Assembly (NCBI RefSeq): GCF_021134715.1
Contig: NC_060022.1
Coordinates: forward strand, 4,841,001-4,905,000
Source: Daphnia pulex
Taxonomy: Eukaryota; Arthropoda; Branchiopoda; Diplostraca; Daphniidae
DNA: 64,000 nt
Direction: 5' to 3'
The position numbers were made by a program, and so were the translations under genes. Position 1 is the first letter of the stretch. Every line of letters begins with the position of its first letter. The notes under the pieces were generated by a model. It searched no databases. It was given only the letters and a program-made list of their open reading frames with translations, and was not told where the DNA came from. Below are positions 2,354 through 63,293 of this stretch, piece after piece.

Positions 2354-4331
2354 ATGGACTTGGTGGATGCCAATGACGGATCAGGCGAGAGTGATCCTCA
2401 CAACTCCGGTGCAGCAGAAAGTTCATCCCTGAACGGTGGAAGAAGTAGCGGCGGAGGCAATATTGGCGGCTCCAATCCCAGTCATTCCCAATCCTCGTCC
2501 GCCATCAGTATTGTTCACGTTTCTGTACCGCAAGCTCAAGTAAGTTACTATACATTGGTCATTACCCTGGGCGTCCTATCGGCGTGTTTGTTTCATGCTA
2601 TCTTTCAAATTTGGGATGCTTATCTTTTATTTCCTTCATTTCAAGGTGCAATCGGTGATACAGCCAACGTCCGTCATTCAGAGTACGCCTAGTCTACAAG
2701 CCACCTCCCTACCAAAAGGCAACATCATTTTAGTTAGCAAGCCAAATTCCGTCATACACACAACCGGCGGTGGCGGAGGCTCCATCCAGACATTACAAGT
2801 AGTCCTAAAAATAACTTTTACTCTGTTGGGAGGCGGGGAGTTCCTCTTACTAATGGTTGTTATTGCTTCTTCACAGGTGATTGATAACAGCGGCTTGCAC
2901 GAAGACGAAAACACCAAAAAAAGGCGCGAAATCCTGGCACGCCGGCCGTCTTACAGAAAAATTCTCAACGAGTTGGGAGGTTGCGAGATTTCCGGCAAGT
3001 TTATCTCCTCGGGACTTCCTTTTCCCTTGTTCTCTTTTTTTCCTTTTTTGTTTTAGTTTTTTATTCTTTTTTTTTATTGTGTAGTGCATTTGTTTCCCTC
3101 CGTCGATTCTAAACGCATCATTTATTTCTCTCTTTTTCATTGTAGAAGATAAAGGAGACTCGCCGGGAATCGATTCAGATAGTAGCAGTTCGTCTCCCGC
3201 GCCCCCTTCTAGCCATAATCAAAGAACGGCCTCGTCGGTCGCTATCTCTGGCACGCATTATCAGACTACTGCAGGTTTAATCAAAGGTATTATTAGACCC
3301 AGAATCTTGGCTCTCTTGCCTTTTCTTTCTTTTCTTTGTTGTTGTTGTTTTGTTTTCTATTTCTCTTTCTTTTCAAACGAACCCATTTGGTATATTTCCA
3401 CAATTTTCACGCAATCTTCACTATGACATTCTAGTCCTACCTGGTGGAACCATCCAACTGGCTACACCAGCCGGCAATACTAGCCAGGGTTTGGGCGATG
3501 GTGGTGGTCAAACACTATCCACCCTCACTATGACAAATACGCCAGGAGGAGGTGCTATTGTCCAGTACGCTCAGGGTCAGGACGGCCAATTTTTTGTGCC
3601 AGGTTGGTTGTGGAAAAACATAAAAGAATCAAGTCACCCATCCATCCATCTTCTATCCTATCCACAGTATATATGTCGTCCCATCTAACCTTATCTCTGT
3701 CGTCTGATAGCACCCTTACCCTTTCTGGCCACGTATCAACATTTCACGTTTTTTATTTATTTATTTATATTTTTTGTATTGTCGTTTTTAGTTTGCGTCA
3801 CCGGTGACCTGCAAGCATACGCTTTACGTCCCGTCACGACCACAGCCGGCCTTAATTCGACGGGCGTCGTAGTCGGCAGTGGCACCGGACAAAGCTTACA
3901 GGTACGACCAGCTGTTATTATTTTGTTGCAATTATTTTCGTGACTCATCACGATCATTTTATTCTGATAGAATTCCAAACTTTTGGCGGAAGAAGCGTCC
4001 CGAAATCACGAACTACGTATGAAGGGAAAGTGAGTAACGTGATTATTATTATTATTAAAACTAAATAGAGACCGTTGCTAATTTCTAATTTGTCTGATGT
4101 TGCAGTAGCGGAAATCACAGCGACGAATGGGACCCGTCGGAGCCATCGCTACAAAAGCGAGAGCTGCGACTGTTAAAGAACCGAGAAGCGGCTCGAGAGT
4201 GTCGCCGGAAGAAGAAGGAATACATCAAATGTCTGGAGAATCGAGTAGCTGTACTCGAGAACCAGAACAAGGCCTTGATAGAGGAGCTCAAGTCGCTCAA
4301 GGAACTCTACTGCAGTCAGAAAACAGACTGA
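2354..4331 (+). CDS. CrebB: CREB/ATF1/CREM-family bZIP transcription factor
   Basis: Nuclear cAMP-responsive transcription factor that binds CRE sites as a dimer and recruits CBP when phosphorylated. Coding exons: 2354-2539, 2646-2798, 2877-2994, 3146-3286, 3435-3602, 3792-3901, 3971-4029 and 4106-4331, giving 386 residues. Ser/Gly-rich and glutamine-containing activation segments come first. The kinase-inducible domain around residues 128-145 contains RRPSYRKILNEL, with predicted phospho-acceptor Ser138 equivalent to mammalian Ser133. The C-terminal bZIP (about 329-381) has a basic region (KNREAARECRRKKKEYIKCL) and a leucine zipper ending just before the stop, as in CREB. The first coding exon follows an acceptor at 2326-2327 and its ATG has a good context. 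Intron 3 (2995-3145) must use a GC donor, because the nearby GT donor leads to an immediate stop. Identity is clear; only the untranslated first exon is uncertain. Confidence 0.95.
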
Positions 4332-32670: not shown

Positions 32671-35600
32671 TCAGATCGTTTCCGGAACAGTGGGCAACTG
32701 TCGCTGATGGATGAGCTTGTGATGGTGGTGGTGGTGCTGCTGCCTGCCAGCGGTTGTTGTGTAGTTGCTGGTACCACCAACTCCGCCGCTCAAATGATTG
32801 CCCAACGGCAAAGCTCCGGAATAGGCGGATGAACCCGTCTGCTGCTGCTGCTGCTGCGGATGACTGATGGCCGGCTGATGGCAATCGGCTGGGGCCAGGA
32901 CTCCTCGCGGCGGAGGCAGGGCCAGCAGCAATCGACTCCAGCAGAATCTCCGGTTCCACTCGACCACTTGACTGTGTTTCAACAGCAAGTGCAGGTCCAG
33001 GTCGGCGTCGATCTCGCGGACAATCTGCGGTTCCGGCAGCAAAATGATGACGCGGTCCCGACGGGATCGGACCGACCCTCCGCCGACGGCTCCGGCCGAC
33101 GCCGGTTGCCACGTCGATCTCAGCAAGGATCGGACGTTGGCTTTGCCCCACTCGGTTTCCACGAAGCTCTTGGTCAGCAGGATGAGGAGCCGGCGGCTGG
33201 CCAGGGCCGCCGCCGTCAAGTCCTGATCGTGATCGGCGATCCGGTGCTGCAGGCACAGCTGGTAGGTCTTGCGCTCCAGCCGGACCAGCGTGTCTTTGAG
33301 CAGGACGTCGTCCTTGGCCGAATAGACGACCAGAGCGTCGAACGGTTTGCTCTCGGCGCTCTCCTCGTCCTGCTGCTGCTGGTAGCACATCCGCACTCCG
33401 CACTGGCTGAAGAGGAGGAGCCGCAACTGGCGGCGGCAGCAGCACAGGCAAATGCCGGCCGACAGGACCACCAGGGCCAGGGAGAATGTGGCGGCCATTA
33501 GGAGCCACCAGTCGGCCGGATGGTAGGGACTCAACAGGACCGACGAGCTGTCCGACGTCGGGCAACTTTCGTTGGTGGCCACCAGGATCTGCAAGCCCAG
33601 CGGTGAACAAGTGACCGACTCCTGGTCGTCGATGCTGGCCCGGGTCGACTGGAGCCAATCGCGCAGCGGGCGGACGAAATCGCATTGACACGACCAAGGG
33701 TTATCGGCCAGCCACAAGGAGCGCAGGTAAGGATTGGCCGTCAACAGCTGGGCAGCGTCGTAGCGCGCCAGCTGGTTGCCGCTGACGTCCAGCACCTGTA
33801 AACTTCTCAGGTGACTGAATGTCTTGGCGTGAATAAAAGCGATCCGGTTGTTCTGGACGTAGAGCTCGCGCAGGTTCTCCAACGGCTCAAACTCGTAGCC
33901 GGACAACTCGGTCAGCTGATTGCGGTCCAGGTGGAGGACCAGCAATCGTTTCAGCCCGCTGAAGGTGTGGTTGTGCAGCGAGACGACGGCCGAGTTGTTG
34001 AGCAGCAAAGTCCTCAAGTTCTTCTTGCCGATAAAGGCGTGATTGGTCAGCTGACTCAAATTGTTGCCGTCCAGGTAGACGTCGGTGGCATCCATCGGGA
34101 TCCTGGACGGTATGTCGGTCAGCAGGTCACCTCCTCCGCCTCCGCCGGAACAGTCGACGACGTTGGTGGACCACGACTGGTCGTGGTAACAGGAGCAATT
34201 GGTCGGGCAGGTCATTTCGCAGTCGCAGGCGTCGAAATCGCAGCAGTGGCACAGGGCGAAACAGTGGGCCCGGTACGGGCACAGAAAATCCGACGAGGTG
34301 GCCTCCACTAGCGGCGTGACTGAGCGTGAACCACGCCCGTACGACAGCCGGCAGTAAATCGAGTCCTACATACGTATAATTATGGAGATTGTTATTTATC
34401 GAACGGTGGTGGCGGAGGCCGGAAGCCGGAGCTCGTTAACTATTTTTTAATGAATTGATGAATTAAAAAATAGAACAGGAGAGACTTACCAAATCCATGG
34501 CTCTTGGGTATTGGCCGGCATTGTTGAGTGCGTTGATCCTTTGGAGCCATTCCCTGCGTCGTTTAATAAATCAAGGCGTCATTTGCATTTCGATCCTTAC
34601 TCAAATAGTTGTGACACACATTCAACGTCCCCCCCCTTCACTATTCTAATTGGGCCGCCGGGCTCTCCACAAAAGAATAAGTATATCCCCGGCCCCACTC
34701 CTCCCAGGAACAAAGTCAAATGAAAATGAATCGTTTCCTCCTCCTCCCGCGGTGCAACTATGGGTGCGGCTCCTGCCGGCCGGGATCGGCTCCTCGAGAC
34801 TTTATTGATTGATCAGAGCTTGATTGATGACTATAAAAGACTCCTCTATTTCTTTCTCATTCGTTGTGGATATAAAGGAAGAAAAAAAGTAGCTTTGAAA
34901 CAGGTCAAGGATTATATAAGTTCGGGTCGATGGAATATAAGGAGCTGATGTACAGCCAAGGAGCAGCAGCTTGGTGGTATATATCGAATCCTATTCTCAG
35001 GGATATAGCTCGGGCCAAATGAACGACGGGTATAGTAGTATGGCGACCCAATCTTATATTGCCCGTCTTCTATATAGACGACGGCCTCTTTTTCTCTCGA
35101 CTCTCTCTCTATCGCCGGCCGTAAAGCTCCTTTTTTTTTGTGTTGGGCTGGACAGGAGCTCGGCATATATACACTATATATAAATATACGAGCAGAGGCT
35201 TTTCTTTTATGAAGTGGCTTGTGTGCCACAGGAATTAGGGGGCCTCCTTCAGGATTGACTGGGCGATTCATCAGTGGATCGAGTAGAGAAAATAAAAGGA
35301 ATCAAAATGTAGTACATCTTAAAAAAGGAAAAAAAGGAAAAAAGGAATAAGTATTCTTTATTCTTTTGTGTTTGATTAGGTTTTGGGGTCTTTGTTTTCA
35401 TGTTCCATTTCTTTTTATTTTATAAGTCGATTTTGAATCATTTTAACTATCGATATCTTATTAGGCATGGCTTATGCTAATTAGAATTTCGTCTGCTTTC
35501 TTTTTGATTACACGTTTCGAAAAATAGACGAAGATAATCTCGTGTCGTGCCTCTTTATAGAATCGCTTAATATACACACCATGCTGTTCAGCAGGTAAAC

Positions 35601-38600
35601 AAAACTAAGAATGTAATTAGAATAATTACGGGAGCTTAAAAAGAAGAGTTGAATCTGTTCTAAAGTTGTGAAATCTTAGATCTTGACTAGTCTTTGCCAT
35701 GTCGTGCCCCTGTCGATGCATGGAAGTTTGTTGGCACTTTGTAACCTTTTCTTTTATGCAGATTTGAGACCTGAGACCACCATCATGACCACAAGATATG
35801 CCAGTTTGGCTTGTGCTGTATTAACCAGTCATCAGCATCAATCTTATTATCATCGCTTGGGTAATGAAATTCGTTACAACTATTCCTGTGACCTGCTAGG
35901 TATCTTAATGATGCACATGACTTGTACACATGCTGCAGTGTGTTACATAAAAACCTGAAATTCTCTCATTTATTAAAAATTTTGGTTTACCCACTATCTC
36001 ATTTTCAGCTTTTCCTTATATAGTTATTGTTTCTGTCAATATTTTTATTCATAACCCATTTTAAAATTTTTAATTTAGATACAAACAGCATCCCCCTTGG
36101 TTGAAGAAACTACTAATTACGGCGTTACCGGATCTTTCACTTTCTTCAAATCCCCTCTCTCCTTGTGTACACCCATGTGAGTGTGGGTGTTAGACTCGGT
36201 ACAAGTCTGAGCCCCAGCCTTTTCCTATCCCGCCTGGTGGATTCAACTCTACATGGGAAGGAGAACTTTTGGATGCCTGGCCGTGGATTTCCCAGGCTTA
36301 AAGGTAGGACAAACGTTTCTCTCTATTCTTCCTTTGGCGTTGATTATCAATCGTTAAGGTGTACGATTATTAATGAGCTAGGCTGTTGACTGTTTTCTCT
36401 TGCCGTTTTTGTTAACTCAGTCAGGGTTCATTAAATAACTCATTCGTTAGAAGAACTCTGCACATCAGGCCTGTACTCACAACTTACATCTTTGGGTCGG
36501 AAATATTTTAACTTTAAACACTTGAAGCAAAGTGCCACTATAGAAAGGGACGTGCCGCCACACCTCCTCGTTATCGTCCTAAAACTTCACTTGATCGGAT
36601 TTTTAAGTTGAAACTCTTTTATATAGGCCCAGACATACAAGGCAGAGCGAGGGCGGGTCACTATTGAGTGAGAATGGGGCTACAGCTCGGGATCGATGAA
36701 AACGCAACGGGGGAGGAAAGGGACGTGTACACAATTTCGTGTGTGACAGTCAGTTGGCTTGACAGAGAGAACGACAGCTGAGCTGAGAGAGAGTCGACAG
36801 ATTCTTCAATTGTTGGTTGGCGATCGATATTCCATCTAGAGATGTTCCCTTAACATTTCCCTATTGTTCTCTCTCTGCTCTTCCTCATCTCCTTCCTCAT
36901 CTTTTTGTCAAATTTGATGATTTTTTCCTTTTTGCTCTCTCTGCTCCGCCTCCTTGTTTGTATCTTTTTTCCTCGACGCCTCGATGGATTTCTTTTTCCC
37001 AGGGCCTAGATACTTTGCCCCCGACCCAAACGGTAGAGGCCCATATATATTTTTAGTCTATTGAGCGAGAGAGGAAACAAAAGAACCGGAGCCTCATACT
37101 GTCGAAAATGAAATAGACAATTTTCTCCTCTCTCTTTTCTAGTTTCTTCTTTCTTCTACCCTTTTTCTTCCGTCATCCGAACAAAAGCTCCGGGGCCTAT
37201 TATATATAGAGTCGACCGTGAATGTCGGAGTTCAAATAAGAAGCTTATACAATCGCCCAGTGTGTGTACATACACACGCTCGCTAGCAGAGAGAGAGAGA
37301 GAAAAGAGCTATAGTATATACCCTGTTTTTCTTCCTTTCTTCTTCTTTTTGTTACTACAGTCAACTTAAAGATGAAGAAGAAAATAGTCCGGCCACTCTG
37401 GAGCTTAGAGTTTCAAGTTTCGTGGCATCATGTTCCACGTCCAGTCCAAAGCAAAAGAGCCCAGTCTTTTCTCCAGTTTGGCAAGTGAGAGAGAGAGAGA
37501 GAGATACAGAAGGGTCTTCTCAAGTTACTGGACTTGGGGGGAAAACTATCGCGTGCGCCGCCCATGAAAAAAGACACACAGGGAGGGAGGGAGTCAAGTT
37601 GCACGGTCCGTCTTCAGTCCAGCAATGGGGAAGGTAAACTTTTTTTTTTTTTAGAAATGGGCAGGGCAGGGTGACTATTAATTCGTGATTTCGCCTAATG
37701 AGCGCTTAATGGTAGTTTCTACTTACATGTCGCAATCGCACTGGAACGGGTTGCCGCCCAGGTAGAATTCCGGCAGGACCTGGACGTCGGGGCTGAGTCG
37801 CAGGGCGTTGAGGTTGAGCGTCACCAGCTGGTTGCCGTAGAGGTCCACCCGGCTGAGATTGGCCTTGTCGGCGAACGTGTTGGGCTCGACGACGCTGATT
37901 TGGTTGTCGCTGAGCGTCGCCACCCGCAGGCCGTGCGGAAGCGACGAGGCCCCGATGGAAGCGATCCGGTTGTAACTGGCGTCCAGTGTCTCCAACTTGA
38001 GGTGGCTCTCCAGTCGCAGGTAGTTGCCCAGCTCTTCGATCTGGTTCTTGTGCAGGTCCAGCCACTGGAGCCCAGTGGGCAGGAGGGCGTAGTCGAACCA
38101 GCGCAGGTCGTTGTCCGACACGTTCAGCCGCGTCAGGTGCGGAAGATTCTGGACGACGTGCTCCAAGCTGCTCAGGTTGTTGCCGTTGAGGAACAGCGTC
38201 TCCAATCCAGTCAGACCGTCCAGGGCTCCTCGCTCCAGCGTCTGCAGCGACGAGTGCGACAGGTCCAGGCTCTTAAGCAGACCCAGCGGCGGAAGCGAAG
38301 CGGCCCGGATGGTCTTGATTTGGTTGCCGGACAGCCGCAGGTGGTGGAGATTTTTCAATCCGCGCAGGGACGTGGCGTTGATGAAGCGGATGCGATTGTG
38401 CGACAGGTCCAGGGTCTTGAGGAGCGTCAGGGTCTTGAAGGAGGACGGCAGTCGTTCCAGTCGATTCTCCTGCAGGTGTAGCTCTTCTAGGTTGGAGCAG
38501 TTGCGGAAAGTTTCGGCGTCCAGGCCGACCAGGGAGTTGCCGTTGAGTCGCAGTTGGTTGAGGACCAGCAAACCGTTAAAGTAGTGGCTCTCGATGAAGG

Positions 38601-40326
38601 CCAACTTGTTGTCGGACAAGTCGAGCGTGTGCAAATTGCTCAGCGAAGCGAACGAGCCGGACTCGACGGCTTCGATGGCGTTCGAGTCGAGTTTCAGGAC
38701 CTGCAAACTGTACAGGTCCTTGAACAGCGGGCGGCGGATGCGGCCGATTTGGTTGTGGGACAGGTCCAGCACCACCAGACGGACCAGGTTGTCGAAGAGG
38801 CTTCCGTTGGCCAGCGTCAGCCGATTCCACGCCAACTGCAGCACTTCCAGGTGACGCTGGGAAGCCAATGAGCCGGCCGGCAGGACGGACAGGGTGTTGT
38901 TGCTCAAGTTGAGCTCCTTCAGAGCGGCCGTTGACGTCAGGAAGGTTTCCGGTAGCCTCTCCACTTGGTTGACGGACAGGTCCAGTTGCTCCAGCTGCTC
39001 CAGGGGACCCAGAGCCTCGTCGTCTAGCTGCTGGATCTTGTTGTGGTCCAGTTTGAGGATGCGCAAGTGACGCAGGGCGGCCACTCCGCGGCCTGTCAGC
39101 GCCGCCAGTTGATTGTAGGAGGCGTCCAGCGTCGTCAGGGGGGTCGGGCAATACGCCGGTGGCGTTGGAGTTGAACTGGTCGCCGTCGTCGTCGTCGTCG
39201 TTGTAGTGGAAGTTTCCGTCTCGATGGCGGCGGCCTCAAAGTTCAATCCCAAATCGTTGAGATCGGCCAGTCGGTTGTGACTGACGTTCAGAAATTGGAG
39301 GCTGGTCAGATCGCAGAAGAGCTGGCGCCGAAACGACTGGATGTTGTTGCGGCTGAGATCCAGCCGTTCCAGTTGGGCAACGTCGTGAGCTAAGCTGTCG
39401 CGACTCAGGTCGAGATTCATGGCCGGCCAGACGTCGTTGTGCGAGCGAATGGCCAACGATCGAAGATCGCGCAGTCCGTGGAAGACGCCGCGGACCAGCT
39501 GGCCCAGCTTGCAGTAATCGATGGCCAGTTGTCGCAGATGGTGCAAATGGCTGAAACTGTGCGGATGCAGAAAGCTGCAACCAACACCCAACATACACCA
39601 AACCATTAAATTTTGATTGATTCGCAAGAGAGGCCACAGACACACATCAAAAGGCCTTTTAATCAATAAATCAGAGAGCTCGTTGCTGCTGCTGCTGCCG
39701 GAAGGTTTATTTGTCTTCATTTACAAATGGCTGCAGCGGCGGCAGCAGCAGCAACGATTGAATTGCCAATCATCAAATGACGATCGATCAATAAAGTTAG
39801 GCGGGTAAATTGAATTATTTCGACGACGAAATTGAAAGGGCGGGTCTTTTTTTGGAAAATAAAAGAAAATGGGTAATTGAATGTGTTGTACAATGGACGT
39901 TTTGTGTTGTTGCATTTACCTTTGGTAGAGGAGCGAATCGCTGCATTCGATGGTGAGCGAGGCCGTGTGCTCCCGCGGCACGACCGAGAAATTGGTCTGA
40001 TCGAATTGACTGTTGATGGTGCGGAGTCGGCAGTGGAGTGCCACGTCGTTAGGGCCGGCGACTCCGGCCATTGGCAGCAGCCCCGAATGACCCGATGATC
40101 CGTTCCCATCGCTTGACGTCGCCATCGACGACGACATGGACGACGTCGACGAAGTGGATGATGACGACGAATTCATCATCGTCCATTGGCAATCGGACGG
40201 CGCCTCGTAATGGAAACTGGCCCGGCACAATGCGAATTGCGTCGTCAGTAGTAGGAAAAGGACGGATAAAACATTGGCGGCGTTATTTATCGGCCGGCTC
40301 CGTTTCATCCCCATCATGGCCGCCAT
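32671..40326 (-). CDS. Toll-like receptor of the multi-cysteine-cluster type (Toll-6/7/8/18-wheeler-like)
   Basis: Single-pass receptor for developmental or immune signalling. Exons: 40326-39920, 39574-37727, 34553-34490 and 34365-32671, with matching phases, giving 1337 residues. The signal peptide is NVLSVLFLLLTTQFALCRA. About twenty leucine-rich repeats run from roughly residue 140, beginning FSHLHHLRQLAIDYCKL and IRSHNDVWPAMNLDLS as in Toll-7/18-wheeler. A C-terminal cap spans the small exon (CDCDMEWLQRIN). It is followed by a cysteine cluster (CPYRAHCFALCHCCDFDACD and CEMTCPTNCSC) and a second LRR block ending DNPWSCQCDF. A membrane segment lies near 1059-1082 with CLCCC at its inner edge. 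The TIR domain spans about 1114-1262, starting FDALVVYSAKD. Its BB-loop region reads HRIADHDQDL and lacks the usual R-D-x-x-P-G. The tail is Gln- and His-rich. Repeat copy C lies antisense in intron 2. Confidence 0.93.
35480..36580 (+). repeat. Dispersed repeat family, copy C, inside a Toll intron
   Basis: Homologous along its length to copies A and B, with shared blocks such as TTAGAATTTCGTCTGCTTTC, GTCGATGCATGG, TCATCGCTTGGGTAATG, CCTATCCCGCCTGG and TTTCCCAGGCTTAAAGGTAG. Exon-like blocks lie at 35762-35860 (TTTTATGCAG before, GTAATG after) and 36079-36303 (TTTAATTTAG before, GTAGGA after). The stem-loop at 36162-36205 keeps ACACCCA/TGGGTGT pairing, and CTTGTGTAC pairs imperfectly with GTACAAG. 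It is antisense to the Toll gene and lies within the intron from 34554 to 37726. Confidence 0.75.
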
Positions 40327-59116: not shown

Positions 59117-60371
59117 CCCTAGGGAAAAACAATTATTCAATCATCACTTTAAAAATCCTATTCCATTTGTGACCACCTTTTAAAAGTTTCCTCTTACACA
59201 CACACACACACAATTCACACACGTGCACACACACACAAACAAACAAAAAAAAAAAAAAACGGGCAGGATCCCCCCTGTTAAGTTTTCATTCTTATACTAT
59301 TATAATTATTCTTAAAAAGATTACAAAAAATATATATTATATTCAAAAATTAGGTGAAAAAGAAACAAAAATAAGAAAATGTGTGTGTGGCCCACGGCGT
59401 AGCTGCCCAACCCCCCATGTTTAAAACTATTCCAAAAAAAGAGATAAGATGTGGTATTGTTAACTGCGATAAACCCCTTCTTCCCCCGAACACTCCTCCC
59501 TTTTGTGAAGAGAAGGAAAAAGTCTTGTTATTTGTCATATCATCTTATTTGGCGGCTACATATAAAAACAAACCTCGGTTATCTTTAATTAGATTGAAGG
59601 CACCCTTTGTTGTTTATAGATACTTGGCCCACTTGTGTTTCATACATATAAATAATTGTGTATAGGAAGAGCCGAGAAGAAAGTGAATTCACCCAGTCAA
59701 GATGATGAAGAAGGTAAAAAAAAAGTCCTGATGATTGTGTGTGTTATATACTATTATTTCTTGTCATGTAATTTGATTGTTTCGTCTATCATCGAAAATA
59801 ATATCTAATAGGAAATGGAATTTCCCACATTTTCAAGTGTTTTCAAATCTCAATGTTTTCAACAAATACTGCCGCCATCAGCTTATTATCTTAAGCTGAG
59901 AATGCATTTTTTATCTTTGCAGGTAGTCGACGTTGGTTTATCCTATGATAACAATGAACGTCATTTCGAATGACGACTTGAAAAATAGCAGTCCACAGCA
60001 GAAGGCGTTGCTATCGAATCCCACGTAGGTCGAAACCATTTCTTAACCAACAAGATGATGCATTTTTCTAAATTAAGAAATGATCTGTCGATAGAAATCA
60101 GATACAAAAACTTACCCAATGATTGAAAAAGGTTAATGATCAACATGATATGGTAAAACAAAAATTTGAACGTCAAGTATCGTCATTTGATAGATTAATG
60201 GTCGAAATTATTGTTTACATTTCGGTCAAGAGTCGTCACGTACACTGCGGACCTTCAGAGTTTTTGTAATCAGTTTGGAAAGCCGAAGATTAGAGTCCGG
60301 TTAGACTTTGATAATATTTTTATTGTAACTTTAGAGTTGAGCCGAGTGAGGCCGAGACATTCGTTCCACGC
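59117..60371. other. GRAMD1 3' UTR and intergenic DNA
   Basis: Contains a CA-rich microsatellite at about 59196-59238, an A run, and AT-rich sequence. No coding exon was recognised before the ankyrin gene. Confidence 0.45.
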
Positions 60372-62900
60372 ATGGCCGACGCGAGTGACGACCATCCATT
60401 GAGGCCGCCTCTCTGGTACCTGGAGTTCAGGCAACTGCTGCGCCGGAATCCAGAAGAGGCGGCCAGACGATGGACTCGGCATCTGGACGACAAGGAAAGG
60501 ATCGATATTGTTTGGACTGCTGCTAAAAGTATTCATTTGGATGTGCTCGAATGGAGTTTGTTGTTGGAGAACCAAGCGACAAGGAAACGATGGATCGACG
60601 CCAACGAATTGCGGGACGAATCCGGTTTGTGTCTCCTGCACGAAGTGGCGTCCAACATTTACGTCACCGTACGCAAATTGTTAGCCGTCTTCCAGTTGTT
60701 GATCCAGCGGGTCGGATGTCAAGTCAACGTCACAGATCCCGACGGATGGACCGTCTTGCACTACGTCTGCGGATCTCACGTCAAACGCAATCGTCGCGGG
60801 CGCCAAATGTACATCCGCCTGTTGAAACTTTTAATCGAGTCCGGAGCAGATGTTACTATTGATTTCGAGGGAATCACTCCGCTTCATTTGGTTCACGAAT
60901 CTCCCTGGGCTATCAGGTACTTGCTGTTGAACACTCCAGCCAGGGCTGACATCTCGGATACCTTCCAACGGACGCCTCTCATATGGATTTTACGAAATCC
61001 TCACCTTCCGCCCGTCCGACGCATTCCAGTCTCCATTTTCCGCGGGCGAATGGACTTCACTGAGGCGGATTACATGGGCCATTCCTTGATTCACTACGCC
61101 GTTCTTCGCGCCCAGTCTGACAAACTGGACGACACGCTGCGACTTATCAAGCGACTTGTTGACATCGGCGCTGATGTCAATCACCGAAACAAACGATTAC
61201 GTACCCCATTATTTTTTCTCGTTCACAAGCCCGACATGCGCCAACTGGCGGAATCGCTCATCCAGCGATTTAATGCTGATGTTAACATCGTCGACGCCGA
61301 CGGTTTCACCGTCGTTCATATTGCAGCTATCCTTGGAAAATTGGACTACGTCACCTTGTTCTTGCCTTACCTGAAAAGGAACGTGGGTACCATCAACGGC
61401 GAAACGGTCCGCACTTGTCTGGAACAGTACTGCGATCCTTCGACTATAACTCCCGAACTGGAAAATGAACTGGCCTTACTGGAAAGCAAAAGTGAATTCA
61501 GAGCCAAGCGGGAATATGTCGAGCCGTACACAGTTTGGAATTACGTCCACCAAATGGATCGATTTAGGGGTCTCCTCTCACTTTACATTGTGGACACCTT
61601 TATCCGGTATCGAGGAGGTAATAATATCACGTATTATTTGAAATTAATGACATTGATTCAACTTACGCAAACATTTACAGGTCGGTCGTTATTTACTGAC
61701 TTTTTCCACCACATCAGCCACAGCGCAGCGATTATACAAAGAGCAAAAGATTTCTTGAGCCGCATTTCCAAGTGGAACGGATCGTCACAAATTTTACTGG
61801 ATATAATCGATCAGTACTCGGTCGTTATTCAGGACGACGCTTCCCAAAGTCAGAATATGTCTATTGAAGTAGAAGAATCTACGCAAATTGCTAGATCTGT
61901 TCATCAGATAGTCCTGAAATTGATGGAACAAATTCGGATTAAAGATGCTCAAAATACCAATTTTGGTTGGAAACTGGACGTTTTGCCCGTGGGAAGCTCC
62001 GTCGATGGCAGTAAAATTCTCCTTCCGGATGAATATGATTTCCTTGTTGTATTCCGCCGTTTCGAGACCCAAAACAAGTTGGTGTCTGTCGGAGAGGATT
62101 ACGTGGATCAAGTTGAAAAATTTCGGCTCTATTTGATTCAATGCATGCAAGAAATGGACCAACAGTTGGCCGGAGAGGAACTTGGATTTCAGTTTGTCGA
62201 TTCCGAAATGCGACGGGTCTGTCTCAACATTCGATTGACTTGGCGGGGTAAACAATCGTCAAAAAACAGTGTTTTTCGCGGTTTAGCCATTAGCGTCGAT
62301 TTGACGCCAGTTTTCCACTTCATCGGATGGGAAAATCAAAGTGGATTTCGACCACTTCGCCCGCTAGAGTCGCTGCCCCAGTGGTTTCAACGCGATCAAA
62401 CTGTTGAACATTTTCGACCGGTAAATAATAATGCAAAATATTATCGCAAAAATTATTCTCATAGCATTGATAAAATATTTTTAAAATTTCAGCTTCATAA
62501 TTGCCTGACAATACCCCCGTGCGCTGCGACGATGGAGGCCCGCTGTCTGAGTCATTCATCTCACTGGCTGTTTCAATATTGTCTAAAACTTTTGAAACTG
62601 ATTGTCCAGAGTGAATACATCATCCAGGACGAACCTACACCCAATTCGCATTTTCTGAAAGTGGCTCTACTCAAATACATCGACGAAAAAGGTCCCCCAG
62701 TTCAACGTCAAGACGTGGCCCGATATGTGGCTGGAATCTGCCGCAAATTGCAGGACACGGACTGGCGTTTCAGAATTGATGATTTTGTAGCTGATGTCTT
62801 GATGCCCTCGCCTGTCGTTACTATCAAGAAAGAACTTTTATCAATTTTGGATAGAACTCGTTGTTCTTCTTTTCTATTCCATGATTGTACTTTACTTTAA
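60372..62900 (+). CDS. Ankyrin-repeat protein with C-terminal cGAS/Mab-21-like nucleotidyltransferase domain
   Basis: Predicted exons 60372-61617, 61681-62420 and 62493-62900 give 797 residues. The two introns (63 and 72 nt) are multiples of three without in-frame stops, so retention would give an intact 842-residue form. About seven ankyrin repeats lie at 80-335 (for example DGWTVLHYVC, EGITPLHLVH, GHSLIHYAV, DGFTVVHIAA; spacers LIESGADV, LVDIGADVNHRN). The C-terminal half has the nucleotidyltransferase hallmark VLPVGSSVDGSKILLPDEYD (acids at 533 and 535 in the spliced form) and a third acid in ISVDLTPVF (Asp622), as in cGAS and cGAS-like receptors. A helical lobe follows (WLFQYCLKLLKLIVQSEY; HFLKVALLKYIDE). 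Those enzymes make cyclic dinucleotides on sensing nucleic acids and signal through STING; that role is inferred here. No cGAS-type zinc thumb is visible. Confidence 0.85.
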   Translation: MADASDDHPLRPPLWYLEFRQLLRRNPEEAARRWTRHLDDKERIDIVWTAAKSIHLDVLEWSLLLENQATRKRWIDANELRDESGLCLLHEVASNIYVTVRKLLAVFQLLIQRVGCQVNVTDPDGWTVLHYVCGSHVKRNRRGRQMYIRLLKLLIESGADVTIDFEGITPLHLVHESPWAIRYLLLNTPARADISDTFQRTPLIWILRNPHLPPVRRIPVSIFRGRMDFTEADYMGHSLIHYAVLRAQSDKLDDTLRLIKRLVDIGADVNHRNKRLRTPLFFLVHKPDMRQLAESLIQRFNADVNIVDADGFTVVHIAAILGKLDYVTLFLPYLKRNVGTINGETVRTCLEQYCDPSTITPELENELALLESKSEFRAKREYVEPYTVWNYVHQMDRFRGLLSLYIVDTFIRYRGGNNITYYLKLMTLIQLTQTFTGRSLFTDFFHHISHSAAIIQRAKDFLSRISKWNGSSQILLDIIDQYSVVIQDDASQSQNMSIEVEESTQIARSVHQIVLKLMEQIRIKDAQNTNFGWKLDVLPVGSSVDGSKILLPDEYDFLVVFRRFETQNKLVSVGEDYVDQVEKFRLYLIQCMQEMDQQLAGEELGFQFVDSEMRRVCLNIRLTWRGKQSSKNSVFRGLAISVDLTPVFHFIGWENQSGFRPLRPLESLPQWFQRDQTVEHFRPVNNNAKYYRKNYSHSIDKIFLKFQLHNCLTIPPCAATMEARCLSHSSHWLFQYCLKLLKLIVQSEYIIQDEPTPNSHFLKVALLKYIDEKGPPVQRQDVARYVAGICRKLQDTDWRFRIDDFVADVLMPSPVVTIKKELLSILDRTRCSSFLFHDCTLL

Positions 62901-63261: not shown

Positions 63262-63293
63262 AATAAATAATGGTTGGATTGTAAAGTAATAAA
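63262..63293 (+). promoter_or_regulatory. Polyadenylation signals of the ankyrin/cGAS-like gene
   Basis: AATAAA occurs at 63262-63267 and 63288-63293, about 360-390 bp after the stop codon. The intervening sequence holds no convincing gene. Confidence 0.45.

What the first reader, a model, noticed from the sequence alone, without database searches (positions are those of the whole stretch)
60372..62900. Ankyrin repeats fused to a cGAS-like nucleotidyltransferase with an intact catalytic triad
About seven ankyrin repeats precede a Mab-21/cGAS-type domain. The glycine-serine motif is followed by an acidic pair (DEYD) and a third acid in a VDLTPVF block, so the active site looks complete, unlike many catalytically dead Mab-21 relatives. 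The zinc-binding thumb of vertebrate cGAS is not seen. An ankyrin platform on such an enzyme suggests a distinct sensing or scaffolding mode in crustacean innate immunity. The motifs are seen directly; the sensing role is inference from the family.
Basis: partly seen in the sequence, partly recalled or inferred. Interest (0 to 1): 0.78.

Follow-up and report, generated by a model that had tools for sequence, protein, structure and literature searches.

The report
Ankyrin-fused cGAS-like enzyme gene
This animal gene encodes ankyrin repeats joined to a very divergent relative of the immune enzyme cGAS; it keeps the metal-binding acids and belongs to a small family of such fusions in the same genome, a protein layout already reported in other animals.

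Summary
Window 60372-62900(+) reads as one gene of three exons with two short in-frame introns, giving 797 aa: ankyrin repeats (about 82-340), then a cGAS-type nucleotidyltransferase (about 395-797). Pfam does not recognise the enzyme half. A profile of six paralogs from the same genome finds it at 1.4e-11 (best of 2000 shuffles 0.037). A profile of all seven has 40 PDB matches: 36 named cGAS, 2 cGLR1, 2 'uncharacterized' (best 8.5e-16). The GS motif and three acids (E533, D535, D622) align with human G212/S213, E225, D227 and D319. The R376 and Y436 positions are changed and the domain is not basic, so chemistry is plausible but product and ligand are unknown. The genome holds at least eight such loci; seven carry ankyrin-like sequence, one has lost all three acids, and nine further places hold fragments. 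A STING-type gene lies 154 kb away. Ankyrin-cGLR fusions were already described (PMC9980059), so this is a new, very divergent member of a known kind. Structure prediction failed (mean pLDDT 35 and 40.5). Sensing by the ankyrin half is inference.

The parts
60372..61617 (+). Exon 1: start codon, ankyrin repeats, linker (residues 1-415)
   Evidence: ORF, splice reading; upstream in-frame stop at 60312, no ATG between
60615..61391 (+). Ankyrin repeat block, about six to seven repeats (residues 82-340)
   Evidence: Pfam Ank_2 4.9e-19, Ank 1.8e-13; PDB ankyrin hits; repeat count and borders by eye
61618..61680 (+). Intron 1, 63 nt, in frame, 25% GC
   Evidence: GT..AG, composition; no transcript evidence
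61681..62420 (+). Exon 2: nucleotidyltransferase core
   Evidence: profile match, alignment A1
61992..61997 (+). Gly520-Ser521, counterpart of human cGAS G212-S213
   Evidence: alignment
62031..62039 (+). E533-Y534-D535, counterpart of human cGAS E225-F226-D227
   Evidence: alignment
62298..62300 (+). D622, counterpart of human cGAS D319; 86 residues between D535 and D622
   Evidence: alignment, spacing
62421..62492 (+). Intron 2, 72 nt, in frame, 18% GC
   Evidence: GT..AG, composition; no transcript evidence
62493..62900 (+). Exon 3: C-terminal lobe with E677, K697, S714, K718 kept (human E383, K414, S435, K439); H715 in place of Y436
   Evidence: alignment
63262..63267 (+). Candidate poly(A) signal AATAAA (others at 63288 and 63502)
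   Evidence: pattern

Best explanation
The gene encodes an ankyrin-fused cGAS-like receptor (ANK-cGLR): an enzyme of the cGAS/Mab-21 superfamily that, when its ankyrin half or its own groove meets a ligand or partner, joins two nucleotides into a cyclic dinucleotide that would be read by the STING-type protein of the same genome. Shown: the architecture, family membership by profile, retained acids, and a STING-type gene in the genome. Inferred: catalysis, product, ligand, the sensing or docking role of the ankyrins, and any link to that STING.
For: A profile of six paralogs, built without this gene, finds its enzyme half at E 1.4e-11, 41 bits, among 2000 shuffles whose best is 0.037, and finds the unspliced window ORF at 2e-10, 36 bits, among 1013 ORFs of the window and ten other loci, next best 0.66. 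Seven-sequence profile against the PDB: 40 matches up to E 10, of which 36 named cGAS, 2 cGLR1, 2 'uncharacterized' (4jlx, 4kb6). GS, the three acids and the counterparts of E383, K414, S435, K439 are kept. The G[S/G], [DE]h[DE], X50-90, [DE] criterion of PMC9980059 is met, spacing 86. Tree of nine sequences: this gene with the paralogs, apart from human cGAS and the genome's mab-21, support 95.7/94. STING_LBD above cut-off in two pieces at C6:5057870 and C6:5058199.
Against: It is very divergent: 17-22% identical to paralogs, longest branch, and it scores lower on the paralog profile (36-41 bits) than a human cGAS stretch does (57 bits). Its own single sequence finds no cGAS in the PDB and no Mab-21 in Pfam. 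R376 is replaced by proline (2 of 3 modes) or a gap (1 of 3), and Y436 by histidine. Domain pI 6.7, while published DNA- and RNA-sensing cGLRs exceed 8.5. No usable structure model. No expression or transcript data.
Confidence: 0.55

Rival explanations
1. A non-catalytic signalling scaffold: the cGAS fold is kept for protein binding, and the ankyrins add docking sites, as proposed for shrimp Mab21 proteins that raise IKK-epsilon phosphorylation without making cGAMP.
For: PMC12928593 reports this for three shrimp proteins (abstract and passages). Base-contact positions are altered. A paralog, L037, has lost all three acids, so members without them exist in the family.
Against: All three acids, GS, K697 and S714 are kept despite about 20% overall identity.
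Confidence: 0.27
2. A cyclase whose trigger is nucleic acid bound directly by the enzyme groove, as in cGAS and fly cGLR1, with ankyrins only for localisation.
For: Family membership; three of six paralogs have domain pI of 8.3-8.7.
Against: This member has domain pI 6.7, and only one of six paralogs exceeds 8.5; no zinc thumb.
Confidence: 0.13
3. A decaying gene on the way to becoming a pseudogene, like the L037-type fragments elsewhere in the genome.
For: Longest branch in the tree; fragments of the family exist at nine other places.
Against: Open frame over 2.5 kb, plausible splice sites, all acids kept.
Confidence: 0.05

Closest known systems
Ankyrin-fused cGLRs of animals (Li et al. 2023, preprint PMC9980059)
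   Same: Ankyrin repeats plus cGLR domain with G[S/G] and acid triad; the paper names ankyrin and TPR modules among cGLRs, and three cGLRs of the coral S. [quoted passage not shown]
Human cGAS
   Same: Nucleotidyltransferase core, acids and several active-site residues.
   Different: No zinc thumb; R376 and Y436 positions changed; ankyrin half; domain not basic.
cGLR1 with solved structure (PDB 8gjy, 8gjw; organism not shown by the call)
   Same: Matched by the family profile at 7.5e-12 and 3.5e-06.
   Different: Insect cGLR1 enzymes respond to dsRNA (PMC8410604, passages); here the ligand is unknown and ankyrins are fused.
Shrimp LvMab21-1/2/3 (PMC12928593)
   Same: Crustacean members of the superfamily.
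   Different: Reported not to sense nucleic acid or make cGAMP; the word ankyrin does not occur in the main text.
Mab-21 of the same genome (C6:1888830)
   Same: Same superfamily.
   Different: Matches PF03281 at 2.2e-40, which this gene does not; its ORF scores at background (E 2) on the paralog profile.

Membership tests
cGAS-like receptor (cGLR) | Sequence-profile homology to cGAS | tested here: met
   shown through the paralogs, not with the single sequence (negative)
cGAS-like receptor (cGLR) | G[S/G] loop and [DE]h[DE] X50-90 [DE] triad (final criterion in PMC9980059) | tested here: met
   GS 520, E533-Y-D535, 86 residues, D622. The stricter search motif h[QT]GS is not met (V519). Five acid-complete paralogs have gaps of 92-96, just over the range
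cGAS-like receptor (cGLR) | Pfam Mab-21 (PF03281) domain, used to define the superfamily in PMC10732462 | tested here: not met
   no hit up to E 10; genome-wide PF03281 and PF20266 searches return none of the eight loci; paralog L035b has a sub-threshold Mab-21_C hit, 0.022
cGAS-like receptor (cGLR) | Predicted structural homology to cGAS | tested here: inconclusive
   single-sequence AlphaFold2 model, mean pLDDT 35
cGAS-like receptor (cGLR) | Synthesis of a nucleotide second messenger | not testable with these tools
   needs biochemistry
Ankyrin-repeat proteins | Ankyrin repeats | tested here: met
   Pfam Ank_2 4.9e-19
Vertebrate-type cGAS | Zinc thumb H(X5)CC(X6)C in the C-terminal lobe (recalled) | tested here: not met
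   falls in a gap of the family profile; no added segment in this gene beyond one residue

The most novel reading that the evidence does not exclude
In this lineage the cGLR set is built almost wholly from ankyrin fusions that turn over by birth and death, and the ankyrin half, not a nucleic-acid groove, is the sensor: a guard-like receptor that recognises a protein and signals through a cyclic nucleotide of unusual chemistry, reflecting the altered base-contact loop.
Probability: 0.18. Interest if true: 0.75.

Novelty: new member of a known kind. Interest (0 to 1): 0.42.

Why it matters
It shows a family of ankyrin-fused cGAS-like genes that the Pfam Mab-21 models miss, in a genome that also has a STING-type gene. 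The family contains acid-complete members and an acid-lost member, so it offers a natural set for asking what the ankyrin half adds. It does not by itself establish a new mechanism.

Tried and rejected
Two separate genes: rejected. The frame is continuous even across the two short introns, and paralogs L033 and L034 carry both halves in single ORFs of 780 and 757 aa. Chance resemblance: rejected by 2000 shuffles and 1013 ORFs. Membership in Mab-21 proper: not supported. Ankyrin effector or defence labels from NCBIfam and PADLOC lie within the repeat region, and the NCBIfam scores fall far below the cut-offs; taken as generic ankyrin matches. Structure: both folds were single-sequence and too poor to use; no fold search was run. 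Relatives in viral contigs and genome contigs: none confirmed (0 of 9 and 0 of 34 candidate stretches). The weak place L011/L014 on C4 was looked at once and not pursued. A second Mab-21_C locus (C4:3000328, above the cut-off; ORF of 822 aa) was set aside as another kind of gene, by eye only. Independent origin of this gene's ankyrin fusion cannot be excluded: of 16 other genome matches to the whole protein, listed from a capped set, none lies in the other cGLR loci, although pairwise comparison does align its repeats with those of L033, L034 and L036, and its repeats gave no match up to 0.01 in L039, L013 or L035, where other members' repeats did match L039 and L035.

Full report
What is there. 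The ORF at 60372-62900(+) is real. It reads through two likely introns, 61618-61680 and 62421-62492, each GT..AG, a multiple of three, and far poorer in G+C (25% and 18%) than the exons (44-51%). The spliced protein has 797 residues. There is an in-frame stop 20 codons upstream at 60312 with no ATG between, and an AATAAA at 63262. No transcript data were available, so the introns are a sequence reading.

Ankyrin half. Pfam finds Ank_2 at 4.9e-19 in two stretches, with Ank, Ank_4 and others. By eye I count six to seven repeats between residues 82 and 340. A single-sequence AlphaFold2 model of exon 1 was too poor to count helices (mean pLDDT 40.5).

Enzyme half. Alone, residues 414-797 have no Pfam match up to E 10 and no cGAS match in the PDB (one match in all, a carboxysome protein at 0.087). 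The link came through the window's own genome (G000, 133,188,837 bases in 13 contigs; window at C6:4841001-4905000). A search with the enzyme half gave itself and two weak places. One, on C4, proved to be a relative, and its C-terminal stretch used as a query gave 12 matches, among them this gene at 7.2e-4. The other (L011/L014) was looked at once and not pursued. Further searches with L036, L037 and L034 gave 16, 26 and 13 exon-by-exon matches; this gene is not among them.

The family. Eight loci remain after setting fragments aside: this gene (Q), L033 (C10:3824438), L034 (C6:3870695), L035b and L035a (side by side at C10:2514856-2518381), L036 (C1:87897), L037 (C5:10649629) and the C4 locus (L013, L039). 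Ankyrin-like sequence is present in 7 of 8: Pfam matches over the cut-off in Q, L033, L034, L036 and L037; similarity to other members' repeats at L039 7033-7697 (2.3e-13), nearly 2 kb before the first C4 enzyme exon, so joined to it by nearness only; and, weaker, in L035b (1.4e-9, no Pfam ankyrin). L035a shows none. These searches are six-frame and score only the best candidates, so the count is a lower bound. Nine further places carry L037-like pieces, seven of them with stops inside and two being short pieces of 34 residues. One more weak place, C10:6387964 (0.029), was left out.

Homology. The six paralogs' profile, built without Q, finds Q at 1.4e-11; the best of 2000 shuffles of Q scored 0.037. 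Against 1013 ORFs of 50 aa or more from the window and ten other loci, plus a human cGAS stretch, human cGAS came first (8.1e-17, 57 bits), the unspliced window ORF second (2e-10, 36 bits), and the next scored 0.66; the mab-21 ORF scored 2. For scale, each paralog scored 179-419 bits on the profile of the other five, so Q stands well outside them. The seven-sequence profile (A1), which includes Q but is shaped mostly by the paralogs, gave 40 PDB matches up to E 10: 36 named cGAS, two cGLR1 and two 'uncharacterized'. A tree of nine sequences and 336 columns puts Q with the paralogs, apart from human cGAS and mab-21, with 95.7/94 support, on the longest branch; the paralogs without Q have 74.4/72. 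Long-branch effects cannot be ruled out.

Active site. In three MAFFT modes G520, S521, E533, D535 and D622 align with human G212, S213, E225, D227 and D319; E677, K697, S714 and K718 with E383, K414, S435 and K439. The human residue numbers and roles are recalled; the offset of 160 was set from the position of the GS motif in the chain. R376 aligns with P670 in two modes and a gap in one, and Y436 with H715. R376 is not constant in the family either: L033 has Q and L034 has K. Six of the seven aligned enzymes keep all three acids; L037 has S, H and T there. The C4 locus, not in that alignment, reads EFD and the third acid in its exons, with S where the others have the G of GS; an exon edge may fall there.

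Spacing. The gap between the second and third acid is 86 in Q, within the 50-90 of PMC9980059, and 92-96 in the five acid-complete paralogs.

Charge. Domain pI is 6.7 for Q (6.5 for residues 480-797; 7.1 for the whole protein; 9.1 for the ankyrin half) and 6.8-8.7 for the six paralogs (Biopython). PMC9980059 reports pI above 8.5 for DNA- and RNA-sensing cGLRs and suggests non-nucleic-acid ligands for acidic ones (passages). pI methods differ, so this is only a hint.

Pathway. STING_LBD matches at C6:5057870-5058142 and 5058199-5058408 exceed the cut-off; a third piece beside them does not, and a fourth match on C1 is weak. I read a GHGLAYSYYYGFLRIILP stretch in that locus, which resembles the STING core as I recall it. 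It lies 154 kb from the gene; this may be chance.

Literature. PMC9980059 (passages and section 19) states that 87% of cGLRs carry no added signalling domain, that some carry ankyrin or TPR modules, and that three S. pistillata cGLRs carry fused domains including ankyrin repeats. PMC12928593 (abstract start and passages) describes shrimp Mab21 proteins acting without cGAMP synthesis. PMC10732462 (passages) required a Mab21, OAS1-C or SMODS domain, a filter that this gene would not pass on my Pfam result. PMC8410604 (passages) covers insect cGLRs. A search for 'cGLR' with 'Daphnia' gave one paper, on another subject by its title, not opened; 'cGLR' with 'ankyrin' gave four, of which I opened PMC9980059 only. 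Other searches: one paper; 173, 20 listed; 115, 15 listed; 83, 20 listed; of these I opened the four named here. I found no printed account of this gene in these searches, but most listed papers were not opened, and subscription papers and supplements were out of reach.

Organism. 

Verdict. An ankyrin-fused cGLR, very divergent, probably enzymatic, of unknown ligand and product: a new member of a known kind, of moderate interest.

Noticed in passing
G000 C6:5057870-5058605 (L038): A STING-type gene lies 154 kb from the window gene on the same contig, which also holds another ankyrin cGLR (L034) and mab-21.
   Followed up: partly
L037 (G000 C5, about 10649503-10652486): An ankyrin cGLR whose three catalytic acids are all replaced; L037-like pieces lie at nine other places, seven with stops inside.
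   Followed up: partly
L033:4934-7001 (-): Ankyrin frames just upstream of the L033 cGLR, one with a sub-threshold PPPDE peptidase match (Peptidase_C97, 0.0056).
   Followed up: no
Alignment A1, N-terminal part: The six paralogs share a cysteine-histidine cluster ending in C.WC just before the enzyme core, possibly metal-binding; the window gene lacks it.
   Followed up: no
window 32671-34308 (-) and 37723-39720 (-): Two leucine-rich repeat ORFs in stretches of raised G+C.
   Followed up: no
window 2595-3056 (+): ORF with a pKID domain (CREB type as recalled), E 1.5e-15.
   Followed up: no
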